Shown here: piece after piece, positions 22,561 to 30,974 of the stretch
How positions within the stretch are numbered: position 1 is the first letter of the stretch
Layout: each line of letters starts with the position of its first letter
DNA from: Pascua guehoae
Lineage: Eukaryota > Basidiomycota > Tremellomycetes > Trichosporonales > Trichosporonaceae
Reading direction: 5' to 3'
Length of the DNA: 64,000 nucleotides
NCBI GenBank assembly: GCA_001600415.1
Contig: BCJX01000008.1
Location: 189,851 to 253,850, forward strand
Program-made: the position numbers and the translations under genes
Notes under the pieces: model-generated
Databases searched by the model: none
The model's input: the letters and a program-made list of their open reading frames with translations, nothing else
What the model was told of the DNA's origin: nothing

Positions 22561-24337
22561 CTACGACTCGTCTTCGCTCTCGAACTCGCCCTCACTTGCA
22601 CCGTCATTGTCGCCGCGGTCATCGTCGTCGTCGTCGCTGTTGTCAGGTAGTTCCCACACCTGGGCATTCAAGACTGCGAGGCGCTGTCCGTCCCAGGCCA
22701 TGACGTAGTTGTGTTCGTTCTCGAGCGAGAATCCGTGGCTGCTGTCAGCGATTAAGTCTCGGCGTAGTGATGCTGCTGGAACCACCGAGCGGTACGTGGC
22801 CGTGGCCATATGGCTTGGCAATCCGTTGGCTGCCAGGTCGTGCATTCGTAGGGCGTCGCACTATGCGTTGCTGACGTTTGAACTCACCCATTAAGCGATG
22901 TCATGACCGAGTCGAGGAGACCAGGTCGCACCTCGCGATGCAGAGCGGCGGCGTCCGACGAGCCGAGGTTTGCGAGGTTCATCCTATCCAGGAGCGCTTG
23001 GACACGGTCGCCGGTGCCAGCGCCATGCGACATGCGCGTGCGGACTGCGAGGGCGAGCTCATCGGCGATAACGCCTGGGTTGGCAAGTACTCCACATGTC
23101 CAGGCCCTGCGGAGTTAGCTACTGACGCTATTATGGCAATGGCTAGGGCCGTTCCGCTGCTAACTGATGCGCCATGTTGATGGGTTGCCAGCCAGGCAGT
23201 CTGGGACACGCTCGCTCGCTGGTAACGAGTGTGCGTGCCCACCAGGCAATACTCTGCCGCCTACTCACTCAATGCGGGCATTTACATCTTCGTCCAAGTC
23301 GGCACACTCCAGGGCAACCTCGGCAGCCACACGATTGGGTACGAGGGGGTAAGGAAGATGCACGAGTCCGCGACACAGCGGGCACGTCGGCGGTTGTCCG
23401 TCGAGGACCTGCTGGGTTAACGCTATCAAGTTGTTGACACCCACCTGGGCCTTAAGGCACTCGAGGCCGCAACGCGCGCAGAAGATATGGCCGCAGGGCA
23501 CGAGGGACATGGGGCACGCGCTGATGTCAGCTGAAGATCGTGACTCTTCAAAGTCCCCCAGCTCACAAACACTGTAGACAGAGCGGACAAGTGGCCAGGA
23601 CTTCGAGATCAGCAGACGCAAAGGTCGGGGGAGTCTGGTGGTCGTCAGCTCGAAGGTACAACCGTTGCCGAGCTGATAGGACCTACCGTCACGCAAGTTG
23701 AAGGATGGGGCGAGCTGCCGCTCGACACCATGGACCGGCGAGGAGACCATTGTTGGGCTTTGGGCGATGGTGGGGAGCGGGAGGGCGGAGGTGTGGAGGA
23801 TCCGACGCGACTTGCTGCGCTATTGGACTGCCGAGAAAGGTCGGGAGGTGTTGCAAGGCCACGGCTGCCCGACGTAGTGGACTCGCCCGACTGGCTCGCG
23901 CCACTCGAGGTGCCCGCCGTGCTCGTCCGTGTCGGCGACTCCCTCGACAATGACGGAGTTGATGGCGAACTGGCTAGGACGCGGGGGAAGGGATCGTAGG
24001 CGTCATGATGAGACGTGCCAGTGTGCTCTCCGATGGTGATCGCCGAGTGCTGCGGGCTGGCCCGCAACTGCAACGGTGAGACTGTTCCCAGTGTCGCATC
24101 TGGCGAGTCTGTGGGCAGGAGTTGCAACGATAGACCTTCGACAGGTAGTGGAAGCTGCTCGATAGCCAACACGGTGGTAGTCGAGGTGACGGCGTCGTCG
24201 GTGGCTGGGTGGGCGTTCAGAGCGCGCGGGGCGTACGAGCAGACTTGGCTGTGATTGTCATCGCAGTGACAGTGTTTTTGAACAGGACGAGTGGGAGTGG
24301 CCGGGGCACTGGCGCTTCGCGACCGGATGAGGGACAT
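22561..24337 (-). CDS. RING-finger (C3HC4) protein, probable E3 ubiquitin ligase
   Basis: Six proposed exons: 24337-23687, 23634-23567, 23520-23269, 23106-22932, 22860-22796 and 22741-22561, about 463 residues. The N-terminal about 215 residues are Ser/Thr/Pro-rich and low complexity. The RING spans exons 2-3: CPLC, then PCGHIFCARC, then TCPLC after a roughly 30-residue loop, giving all eight zinc ligands. It is followed by helical sequence (RVAAEVALECADL; PGVIADELALAVRTRM) and a strongly acidic C-terminus (NSDDDDDDRGDND...ESEDES). The exon 4-5 junction is uncertain: I chose donor GTGCGA after LHRE because it keeps frame with RMHDLAANG; the stronger-looking GTGAGT at 22887 does not. Exon 5-6 intron (54 nt) keeps frame whether or not it is removed. 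The RING assignment is firm; substrates are unknown. Confidence 0.72.
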
Positions 24338-25522
24338 GGGTTACAAGATGCTGCAAGACTTGGAGGGTTTAGGATGTGAGGTTGATATGAGACAAACGAC
24401 TGTGGTTGATGGACAAGAAGTGGGTAGGAGATGAGGAAAGAAGAATGAGTGGAAGAGAAGAGAACAAGGAAGGATAGGAGGACAAAAGGGAGGAATGACA
24501 AAGGACACAAGGACACAAGGAGGAAGGAAAGGAAAGGAAAGGACAGACGGAAGGAAGGAAGGAAAGACAGGCAAAGGAAGGACAGGCAGACCGGCCCTGA
24601 CCACACACACACACAAAGGACGACATGAACGCGTTCAGAGTGGCGCGTGGGGAGTGGCACATGCCAGACTTTGTGTACCGCGTGCTCCGTGTTGGCCCAT
24701 ACCAAAAGCACACACTACAAACATGTCTTGTTGGTGGGGGGCTGGCTAGCTGCTGCGTCGCTACACCGTACGGTACGTCATTTAGTCAATGTCAACAACA
24801 CAACTCCTTGTCTTGCCGCTTCCATCAACACTCTGGTGCAAATGCAAAGTATCATGGCAGTGGTTTCTGCATCGTCTCGATAACTAGCTACAAGTGGGAC
24901 ATGTCTATATTCTCTCCCCTCCTCACCGACGGTGACGCCTGCCCAACCAGGGGCTACGACCCACCCTAACCGGCCCTCGTCCGCGCCCTTCAGCTGCACG
25001 GCGTGCTCTTCACCGCGACCACTACCGCATCTCCCAACCCACTCCCACAACTGCCACCGCGCCACTCTCCAACCCGTCACCAGTCGAACCAACTGGAAAC
25101 TCACGACCCCGCTCACGCGCGCTCACGGCTCAAGCCAACCATAGGCGAGCGGGTGTGCGGCGGAGGACTGTGGGTCGGCATGTTCCAGCGGTGTCGACCG
25201 GCGCAGGGCGGCGAGCGCGCGGGACAATTGTAGCAGAGGCCGAAAAACACAGCAGCGCCGCAGCGGCAAGCGAACGCGCGTAACAAACTTACACAGGCTA
25301 ACGGAAACAAAGGGACTCACAGCGTCGGGCTAAAGACAACGGTTGCGTCCAACCGCGCGTCGGGTCGATGATACACAAATCACACTCGCGTTCGAGCTGT
25401 CGACAAGGGTGAACGAACGCGAGCGAGTAATTAAGGATGGTATTGGTTGGGGTAGTAGAGTCGTGTTTTGTCGATTTTTTTTTTGTCTTCTGAATCGTCG
25501 AAGTCCGTCGGAGTCCTCCCCT
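24338..25522. other. intergenic with GGAA-rich microsatellite
   Basis: This is the leader of the RING gene and 3' flank of the bZIP gene. Bases 24420-24600 are a purine-rich run on the + strand dominated by GGAAGGAA/GGAAA units (pyrimidine-rich in the RING transcript), followed by a CACACACACA tract near 24602. No gene is supported. Confidence 0.55.
24522..24580. repeat. (GGAA)n/(GGAAA)n microsatellite
   Basis: Short GGAAGGAAAGGAAAGGAAAG and GGAAGGAAGGAAAG runs, interrupted by GACAGAC, lie upstream of the RING gene start. Confidence 0.8.
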
Positions 25523-27021
25523 CTAAAACTCGACCAGCGCTGCCTCCCATGTCCACTCTTCACCCGCCGTCGGGACCACACCAGCCGCACCGCCAGGAAC
25601 GACCGGGGGGACGCCGTTGGGCTTGTTGTTCGAGCCCTCGAGCGTCTCGAGAAGGTCGTTCATTTCCTCGTCCCATTCGGCCGCCTGAGTGCCCTCAGGG
25701 AACCAGGCGTTCGCCTGCGCGCCGTGGTCTTGGTGGCCCGCGGCGTGCGCGGCGTCGATCGGGATGAACGAAGCCTGGGGGATGCCGATGTCCATCCCCG
25801 AAGGCGCGCCAGCGCCACGACTACCCTGGCCACGACCGCCAACCGCTGCCTGTTCGCTGGCGAGTCCAAGTTGATTCCTGACAAAGAGCCCGTCGCCCGC
25901 TGCAGGGCCGCACCGCGCCTCTTCGTTGAAGAAGAGACGACTGGCTTGGTCGCCACCGCTGCTGGGTGGCGAGCGACGGGGTTTGACAGGTCAACAAAGG
26001 ACGCGACAGTGTCCGAGACATTTGGAGGCTGGACGTGGTTTGGGATAGTGGTAGGCTCGAGCTGCGCCTGAAGGTGGAGGGGGGAATGGACGGCCTCGCG
26101 GGGCTGAGTGGGGTAGAGGGGCGGCGAGAGGGTGGTGTCCATGCCGGGGGTCGGCTGGGGCGTGGTGGCGGCAAAGGTGGCGGCGTTGGCCATGTTGGCC
26201 ATGTTCGCCATAGGGTGGGGCTGGGGCATGCGACCGTCGGCGGGGTTGTGGAACGAGAAGAATGTGGCGGCCTGCTTGACAATGTTCTCAAGCATGCCGA
26301 CACGCCAGCGGAGAGCAGCGTTCTCGGTGCGGAGGTCGTTTGAGTGGTCCTCGGTGATCTGGAGCATGGGCTGCTCAGGTGCGACAGCGGCCAGGGACGG
26401 TGCAACGGGGGCGTTGAGGACGGGTTTAATGTCCTCGAGGACCTCGGCCGAAGGCGGTGCGACAGTCGCCAAGTTTACGCCACCGCCAGCGCTGACGATC
26501 TCAGGCGGGATGCCAAGATCAGACGCGAGGGAAAGGACGCTGTTGGCTGGAGATGCCTCGCGCGTCTTGCTGGGCGATGATGGAGCCGTGCCGGATCGGA
26601 GGCAACGGTTCTCCTGTTCGAGCTCCACAACGCGCTGCTCGAGCCATGCAAGGTGGGCCTTGCGCTGGTTGCGCGAGCGCTGTGCTGATTCGCGATTGCG
26701 GATTGTCTGTGGATTAGTGTCAGGTCGCATTCAGGATGATGGACGATCGGTGCGACGGGTGGGGGTAGGGGAAAGTTGAGGGGCAAAGTTGAGACGTACC
26801 CTGGCTTCCTTTCGGGCCGCCTTCATCCGGGCCTCATCGTCCATGTCCTCGCCTTCGGCCTTGATGTCGCCGTTGGTGTCGTCGTGGTGGTCATCTTCTG
26901 GGGATGCCTCGCGGGTGGATGAACGTGCGCGCTTGGCGGCGGGGGAAGATGGGGATGAAGTGGGCGCAGGGCGCTTTGACGACGACGCGGTGGCGGAGGT
27001 AGACGCGACAGCGTTGGACAT
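25523..27021 (-). CDS. HXL1: HAC1/XBP1/HXL1-type bZIP factor of the unfolded protein response
   Basis: ATG at 27021. Conventional exon 1 (27021-26800) and exon 2 (from 26706) are joined by a 93-nt GT-AG intron. Residues about 62-112 form the bZIP: basic region RMKAARKEAR/TIRNRESAQRSRNQR and leucine zipper LAWLEQRVVELEQENRCLR. A further helix (DLRTENAALRWRVGMLENIV) follows. Read without further splicing, the protein has 422 residues and ends at 25660 in an Arg-rich tail. Removing 25903-25961 (59 nt, non-GT-AG, IRE1-type sites) shifts to another frame and gives 448 residues, ending at 25523 with an acidic, aromatic C-terminus (AEWDEEMNDLLETLEG, EEWTWEAALVEF) typical of an activation domain. This is the known design of Hac1, Xbp1 and Cryptococcus Hxl1. 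The basic region and N-terminal position of the bZIP also fit. Orthology is inferred, not searched. Confidence 0.75.
25903..25961 (-). other. predicted 59-nt IRE1-dependent unconventional intron
   Basis: On the transcribed strand cleavage is predicted as CAG|CAGC between 25962 and 25961 and CTG|CAGC between 25903 and 25902. Both fit the IRE1 consensus CNG|CNGN and are followed by the same CAGCGG. The excised piece begins CAGCGG and ends CCCTG, so it is not a spliceosomal intron. 59 is 2 modulo 3, exactly the shift needed to pass from the bZIP frame to the acidic C-terminal frame. Confidence 0.72.
25950..25972 (-). promoter_or_regulatory. IRE1 5'-site RNA hairpin
   Basis: Positions 25972-25965 and 25957-25950 are perfectly complementary (8 bp), enclosing the 7-nt loop CAGCAGC (25964-25958) with the predicted cleavage after its third base. 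This matches the 7-nt-loop hairpins IRE1 recognises in HAC1 and XBP1 mRNA. The 3' site (25908-25895) can form a weaker GCCC/GGGC hairpin around TGCAGC. Confidence 0.72.

Positions 27022-30974
<3,953 letters not shown>

What the first reader, a model, noticed from the sequence alone, without database searches (positions are those of the whole stretch)
25895..25972. IRE1-type unconventional intron in a HAC1/XBP1/HXL1-like bZIP mRNA
The bZIP frame and a clearly protein-like acidic C-terminal frame are separated by a shift that no GT-AG intron explains well. Two CNG|CNGN sites (CAG|CAGC and CTG|CAGC on the minus strand) lie exactly 59 nt apart, and 59 nt is the length class (2 mod 3) needed for the switch. 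The 5' site is the 7-nt loop of a perfect 8-bp hairpin. Established knowledge: IRE1 cleaves HAC1, XBP1 and Cryptococcus HXL1 mRNAs at such loops during ER stress. The sequence predicts 422-aa unspliced and 448-aa spliced proteins sharing about 322 residues. This appears to be the lineage's unfolded-protein-response switch.
Basis: partly seen in the sequence, partly recalled or inferred. Interest (0 to 1): 0.92.

Follow-up and report, generated by a model that had tools for sequence, protein, structure and literature searches.

The report
IRE1-spliced stress-response switch gene (HXL1)
This fungal gene carries a 59-letter stretch of the kind that, in its known relatives, is cut out of the messenger RNA during protein-folding stress so that the gene makes a different protein ending; the switch is already known in related yeasts, but this messenger also shows extra RNA folds and a conserved protein tail that look functional.

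Summary
The minus-strand gene 27021-25523 is a bZIP gene with one GT-AG intron and a 59-nt IRE1-type intron (25961-25903, CAG|CAGC and CTG|CAGC) that switches a 422-aa frame to a 448-aa frame (324 aa shared). No well-formed GT-AG intron was found that resolves the frame. It is the Trichosporonales orthologue of Cryptococcus HXL1; the genome has IRE1 and a fungal tRNA-ligase domain. Two database proteins, identical over 307 residues, diverge exactly at the homologous junction, one spliced and one unspliced. DTT-increased HXL1 splicing is published for Trichosporon asahii. So: new member of a known kind.

Three added observations are less ordinary, all functionally untested. (1) The 5' hairpin competes with a long exon-exon duplex that synonymous codon choice favours (0 of 300 codon shuffles as stable). 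(2) A 98-bp hairpin lies about 260 nt after the spliced stop; only the mRNA-sense strand folds much better than shuffles. (3) The unspliced frame holds a conserved hydrophobic-cationic island (RLAVVARVVVALARLRGW here), level with the splice-site motifs. I suggest that it works like XBP1u HR2, bringing the mRNA to the ER; that is inference.

The parts
26800..27021 (-). exon 1 of HXL1, from the ATG
26707..26799 (-). conventional GT-AG intron (GTACGT...CACAG)
   Evidence: relatives such as P0004 and P0008 read on directly as REARTIRN
25523..26706 (-). exon 2, holding the rest of the bZIP (Pfam bZIP_1, residues 67-112), the IRE1-type intron and both C-terminal frames
25903..25961 (-). 59-nt IRE1-type intron, cuts CCCAG|CAGC (25962/25961) and CCCTG|CAGC (25903/25902)
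   Evidence: both motifs in 50 of 70 sequences; junction seen in 5 of 69 relatives
25950..25972 (-). 5' site hairpin, 8 bp around the loop CAGCAGC
25660..25662 (-). stop codon TGA of the unspliced frame (422 aa)
25523..25525 (-). stop codon TAG of the spliced frame (448 aa)
25792..25845 (-). conserved hydrophobic-cationic island RLAVVARVVVALARLRGW of the unspliced frame, in DNA that also codes in the spliced frame
   Evidence: function inferred only
25780..26100 (-). region of the exon-exon duplex (26100-25963 pairs with 25902-25780; 92 pairs in the model) around the intron
   Evidence: model only
25020..25264 (-). 98-bp hairpin downstream of the spliced stop, probably in the HXL1 3' UTR
   Evidence: membership of the mRNA not shown

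Best explanation
This is the HXL1 gene of a Trichosporonales fungus, its Hac1/Xbp1-type regulator of the unfolded protein response. Shown from sequence: a bZIP gene with one conventional intron and a 59-nt intron bounded by CNG|CNGN sites whose removal changes the reading frame, in a genome with IRE1 and a fungal tRNA-ligase domain. Inferred from relatives: under ER stress IRE1 cuts both sites in the cytosolic mRNA, the tRNA ligase joins the exons, and the spliced mRNA encodes the active factor with a new acidic C-terminus. Inferred with lower confidence: the exon-exon duplex keeps the cut exons together while the intron leaves, and the unspliced tail, the 3' hairpin or both bring the unspliced mRNA to the ER membrane.
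For: Gene model and frame switch. bZIP domain. Orthologues across Trichosporonales and Tremellales. Both site motifs in 50 of 70 sequences, with the published 56 nt recovered for Cryptococcus. Spliced and unspliced forms P0004 and P0008; five relatives of 69 show the exact spliced junction. IRE1 with kinase and RNase and tRNA-ligase CPD. No well-formed GT-AG alternative. DTT-increased HXL1 splicing in T. asahii (PMC9515189, passages).
Against: No transcript of this species was seen. The 3' site hairpin is weak and the 5' hairpin is a minority state in long contexts of the folding model. No luminal-domain family was recognised upstream of the IRE1 kinase. That P0004 and P0008 are cDNA is inferred from their missing conventional intron and short contigs.
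Confidence: 0.95

Rival explanations
1. A spliceosomal GT-AG intron, not IRE1, resolves the frame; public gene models of relatives appear to use such introns.
For: 94 GT-AG pairs would restore the frame without a stop; the best 5' sites match GTRNGT at 5 of 6 positions (GTGCGG at 25913). Models P0001, P0002 and P0003 leave the unspliced frame at other places than the IRE1 junction.
Against: None of the 94 has a full GTRNGT site or a CTRAY branch point, whereas the gene's own conventional intron has GTACGT. The exits differ between P0001, P0002 and P0003, while the IRE1 site motifs are shared by 50 of 70 sequences.
Confidence: 0.03
2. A sequencing error or pseudogene produced the frame switch.
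Against: The same two frames in the same order occur in many relatives, including P0004 and P0008, identical over 307 residues before the junction.
Confidence: 0.01
3. The conserved island of the unspliced tail is a by-product of selection on RNA pairing or on the spliced frame, and the unspliced protein has no function of its own.
For: The DNA lies in the downstream arm of the exon-exon duplex and also codes in the spliced frame. Over the whole overlap the two frames are about equally conserved (53/48, 31/28 and 40/39% identity for three pairs); up to the G-W position one pair even favours the spliced frame slightly (43 unspliced, 44 spliced).
Against: In the 18-residue core (chosen after seeing the alignment) the unspliced frame scores 70, 62 and 54 in BLOSUM62 sums against 43, 14 and 16 for the spliced frame. 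The changes are mostly I/V/L/M and R/K exchanges, and column scores equal those of the splice-site motifs.
Confidence: 0.35
4. The folds (exon-exon duplex and 3' hairpin) are by-products of composition or of an old inverted repeat, without function.
For: In a GC-corrected scan the exon-exon region lies only 1.8 SD out, with 4 of 2124 windows lower, one of them over the 3' hairpin. It is absent from the top 15 of 3099 windows of 245 nt, where the 3' hairpin is seventh. The antisense of the exon-exon region also folds well (z -4.1).
Against: Synonymous codon shuffles: 0 of 300 as stable (z -3.9, -3.6); only the windows starting at 26100 and 26040 of 15 along exon 2 reach z below -3. The 3' hairpin is single copy and strand-specific: z -6.1 sense, -1.2 antisense.
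Confidence: 0.4

Closest known systems
HXL1 of Cryptococcus neoformans and C. gattii (PMC3154848)
   Same: Orthologous bZIP, a conventional intron, then an IRE1-type intron at the same codon position, with a frame switch to a new C-terminus; the unspliced tail island is present too (P0042, P0044).
   Different: 59 nt here against 56 nt; a large 3' hairpin is present here, whereas that paper reports the HAC1-type bipartite element as not detected in HXL1 (it was not compared structurally here).
HXL1 of Trichosporon asahii (PMC9515189; protein P0002)
   Same: Same order of fungi, 53% identity; splicing of its HXL1 mRNA increases with DTT.
   Different: Species; by the residue count its intron would be 53 nt; the deposited model appears to use a GT-AG intron instead.
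Metazoan XBP1 with HR2 in the unspliced form (PMC9217131)
   Same: IRE1-type intron with a frame switch, and a hydrophobic segment encoded only by the unspliced frame.
   Different: No membrane targeting shown here; the island is shorter and more basic (my judgement; the two were not aligned).
Saccharomyces HAC1
   Same: IRE1 plus a Trl1-type ligase; a structured 3' UTR element is used for recruitment (PMC9217131, passages).
   Different: Short intron without complementarity to the 5' UTR; the 3' hairpin here is not shown to be a bipartite element.

Membership tests
HAC1/XBP1/HXL1 IRE1-spliced bZIP mRNAs | encodes a bZIP domain | tested here: met
   Pfam bZIP_1 E 2.5e-08 over the cut-off
HAC1/XBP1/HXL1 IRE1-spliced bZIP mRNAs | CNG|CNGN at both intron borders | tested here: met
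   CAG|CAGC and CTG|CAGC
HAC1/XBP1/HXL1 IRE1-spliced bZIP mRNAs | both sites in 7-nt loops of stable hairpins | tested here: inconclusive
   5' site: 8-bp stem, but a minority state in long contexts; 3' site: weak stem
HAC1/XBP1/HXL1 IRE1-spliced bZIP mRNAs | intron removal switches the frame to a new C-terminus | tested here: met
   422 to 448 aa
HAC1/XBP1/HXL1 IRE1-spliced bZIP mRNAs | orthology to a proven member | tested here: met
   Cryptococcus HXL1 proteins (P0042 has the published 406 aa) align along the length
HAC1/XBP1/HXL1 IRE1-spliced bZIP mRNAs | IRE1 and an RNA ligase in the same genome | tested here: met
HAC1/XBP1/HXL1 IRE1-spliced bZIP mRNAs | stress-induced, IRE1-dependent splicing | not testable with these tools
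   no transcripts of this species; shown in Cryptococcus (PMC3154848) and, for DTT, in T. asahii (PMC9515189)
HAC1-type translational attenuation | intron complementary to the 5' UTR | tested here: not met
   longest exact complement 6 nt; 81 of 100 shuffled UTRs pair at least as well (5' UTR taken as 280 nt)
HAC1 3' bipartite element | 3' UTR stem-loop with the bipartite motif | tested here: inconclusive
   a large 3' hairpin exists; the motif itself was not searched and the mRNA end is unknown
XBP1u HR2-type co-translational recruitment | conserved hydrophobic segment in the unspliced C-terminus | tested here: inconclusive
   island in 40 of 70 sequences by pattern; mean hydrophobicity 0.59 and moment 0.17 in the window
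XBP1u HR2-type co-translational recruitment | brings the mRNA to the ER membrane during translation | not testable with these tools
   needs a fractionation or imaging experiment

The most novel reading that the evidence does not exclude
In Tremellomycetes the unspliced HXL1 frame encodes a conserved hydrophobic-cationic island with a function of its own, overlapping the spliced frame, which brings the unspliced mRNA to the ER much as HR2 does for XBP1. In this species the mRNA also carries a selected exon-exon duplex around the intron and a large 3' hairpin, so that one transcript would combine XBP1-like peptide recruitment with a HAC1-like 3' RNA element.
Probability: 0.25. Interest if true: 0.65.

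Novelty: new member of a known kind. Interest (0 to 1): 0.4.

Why it matters
It fixes the coordinates and gene model of the unfolded-protein-response switch in a Trichosporonales genome and suggests that some public models of close relatives (P0001, P0002, P0003) miss the IRE1-type junction. If the unspliced island and the RNA folds work, they would address how basidiomycete HXL1 mRNA meets IRE1, given that the HAC1-type bipartite element was reported as not detected in Cryptococcus HXL1 (PMC3154848).

Tried and rejected
Rfam search of 25400-27200: no relevant family (one chance match at E 4.8). Intron-5'UTR pairing as in HAC1: not supported. A simple PUF-like pattern in 27300-24900: no match. 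DNA of relatives was sought in viral contigs and genome contigs with the unspliced alignment A1: pattern matches, but no confirmed relative; covariation and codon-level selection could therefore not be tested. Searches with the two tails added three unspliced relatives (P0067-P0069) and no new spliced one. That the 3' hairpin is a dispersed repeat was rejected: one copy. That the island is a strongly amphipathic helix was dropped: moment 0.17 (the hydrophobicity scale was written from memory). A genome-wide rarity claim for the exon-exon fold was dropped after the GC-corrected scans. A first count of four exact spliced junctions was corrected to five (P0029 added).

Full report
What is there. 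On the minus strand a coding frame starts at ATG 27021, has a conventional intron 26799-26707 (GTACGT...CACAG) and continues in exon 2 from 26706. Read through, it gives 422 aa and stops at 25662-25660. With the 59 nt 25961-25903 removed it gives 448 aa and stops at 25525-25523; the two share 324 aa. The cut sites read CCCAG|CAGC and CCCTG|CAGC. The 5' site is the 7-nt loop of an 8-bp Watson-Crick stem, the longest such stem around the 948 CNGCNGN sites of the window; the next best has 5 bp, and with G-U allowed one other site reaches 9 bp. Forty shuffled windows have 0.05 stems of 8 bp or more each. The 3' site has only a weak hairpin.

No ordinary intron explains it well. With donors from 26406 on and lengths of 35-249 nt, 289 GT-AG or GC-AG pairs restore the frame without a stop, 94 of them GT-AG. 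None of the 94 has a full GTRNGT site (best 5 of 6) or a CTRAY branch point; no CTRAY occurs in the searched stretch.

Family. The protein has a bZIP domain. A protein search, limited to 7992 scored candidates, returned 66 relatives, best in Vanrija albida, Trichosporon asahii and Apiotrichum porosum, and further in Cutaneotrichosporon, Kwoniella, Saitozyma, Naematelia and Cryptococcus. The host is thus a Trichosporonales fungus by inference from best hits. Two searches with the tails added three proteins, making 69. In 50 of 70 sequences (the 69 plus the window) both site motifs occur in one frame (H-P/S-A ... LQRA, QQRA or LQRT), implying introns of 35-101 nt; the count is 2 mod 3 by construction. 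The same count gives 56 nt for P0042 and P0044, the published HXL1 length, and P0042 has 406 aa, the published C. gattii unspliced length (PMC3154848, passages). In an alignment of 39 unspliced sequences, which I picked from the 66 hits plus the window, A, H and A of the 5' motif and Q and R of the 3' motif are invariant.

Both forms in a relative. P0004 and P0008 are identical over 307 residues and then diverge exactly at the homologous junction, one reading AAGEGLFDNQLGL and one AAVATTSVV. Both lack the conventional intron and come from contigs of at most 2.7 kb, so they are most simply cDNA; the sources do not say so. The exact junction H-P/S-A-A-G-E is in 5 of 69 proteins: P0004, P0011, P0029, P0033 and P0050. 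Other models leave the unspliced frame elsewhere, apparently by GT-AG introns that differ between species (their DNA was not seen).

Machinery. The genome (G000, 33.6 Mb) has one match to the IRE1 RNase family, in one frame with a kinase domain; its best solved relatives are yeast IRE1, with the RNK-x-HH stretch kept (that these include catalytic residues is recalled). No luminal family was recognised in the upstream frames. A tRNA-ligase CPD domain is present. HXL1 has no second copy by protein search. In T. asahii, DTT increases spliced HXL1 mRNA (PMC9515189, passages).

Exon-exon duplex. The 5' hairpin is 90% populated in 41 nt but 3-4% in pieces of 101 nt or more, because exon sequence upstream pairs with exon sequence downstream; forcing the hairpin costs 2.2-2.9 kcal/mol. 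The 321-nt piece 26100-25780 folds at -157.2 kcal/mol with 92 exon-exon pairs, 0 of 100 dinucleotide shuffles as stable (z -5.7), and 0 of 200 with arms shuffled apart (z -6.3; z -6.0). Shuffling only synonymous codons of the upstream arm gives 0 of 300 as stable in each of two versions (z -3.9 and -3.6). Of 15 windows along exon 2, only those starting at 26100 and 26040 reach z below -3. Against: a GC-corrected scan puts the region only 1.8 SD out, with 4 of 2124 windows lower; it is not in the top 15 of a 245-nt scan, and its antisense strand also folds well (z -4.1). Such a duplex could act like the RNA zipper described for XBP1, a paper seen only as a reference-list entry and otherwise recalled.

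3' hairpin. At 25264-25020, about 260 nt after the spliced stop, 245 nt fold into 98 pairs, 20 of them G-U (-144.6 kcal/mol; arm-wise z -7.3, -6.1, 0 of 200). The antisense strand is near its shuffles (z -1.2) and shows four A-C mismatches. Decay of a DNA palindrome without selection should affect both strands alike, so I infer selection on the HXL1-sense RNA. It is single copy and persists in a 2108-nt fold limited to 400-nt spans. In the GC-corrected scans it ranks first of 2124 and seventh of 3099 windows. Whether it is in the HXL1 mRNA is not known; the next minus-strand frame begins near 24337 and has no Pfam match. HAC1 uses a 3' UTR element for recruitment (PMC9217131, passages); the HAC1-type element was not detected in C. 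neoformans HXL1 (PMC3154848).

Unspliced tail. Between the 3' site and the unspliced stop one block stands out, RLAVVARVVVALARLRGW (25845-25792). By pattern it is in 40 of 70 sequences, all among the 50 with both site motifs; P0008 also has it, with Q first. The other nine of the 50 (P0002, P0022, P0026, P0028, P0045, P0047, P0048, P0053, P0057) did not match the pattern. Column scores put it level with the site motifs and above its surroundings. In the core the unspliced frame is better kept than the spliced one (BLOSUM62 sums 70, 62, 54 against 43, 14, 16 for three pairs of species; the Cryptococcus pair joins two proteins 97% identical), but over the whole overlap both frames are about equal (53/48, 31/28, 40/39% identity). 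XBP1u uses a hydrophobic C-terminal segment, HR2, to bring its mRNA to the ER (PMC9217131). I propose a similar role here; nothing was tested. For Ustilago Cib1 a role of the unspliced form has been suggested in print (PMC6988420, passages). The listings show no paper on such an island by title or abstract start; the word hydrophobic is absent from PMC3154848 and PMC5970146. A Cryptococcus UPR review and the Puf4-HXL1 paper were not held, so prior description cannot be excluded.

Verdict.

Noticed in passing
25020-25264 (-): A 98-bp, strand-specific, single-copy hairpin between HXL1 and the next minus-strand frame, the most stable 321-nt region of the window after GC correction.
   Followed up: partly
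   Followed up: partly
P0001, P0002, P0003 (relatives): Public gene models of HXL1 orthologues leave the unspliced frame at places that differ between species, apparently through GT-AG introns forced by the frame switch.
   Followed up: partly
window, 723 N bases: The window contains 723 N; their place was not examined.
   Followed up: no
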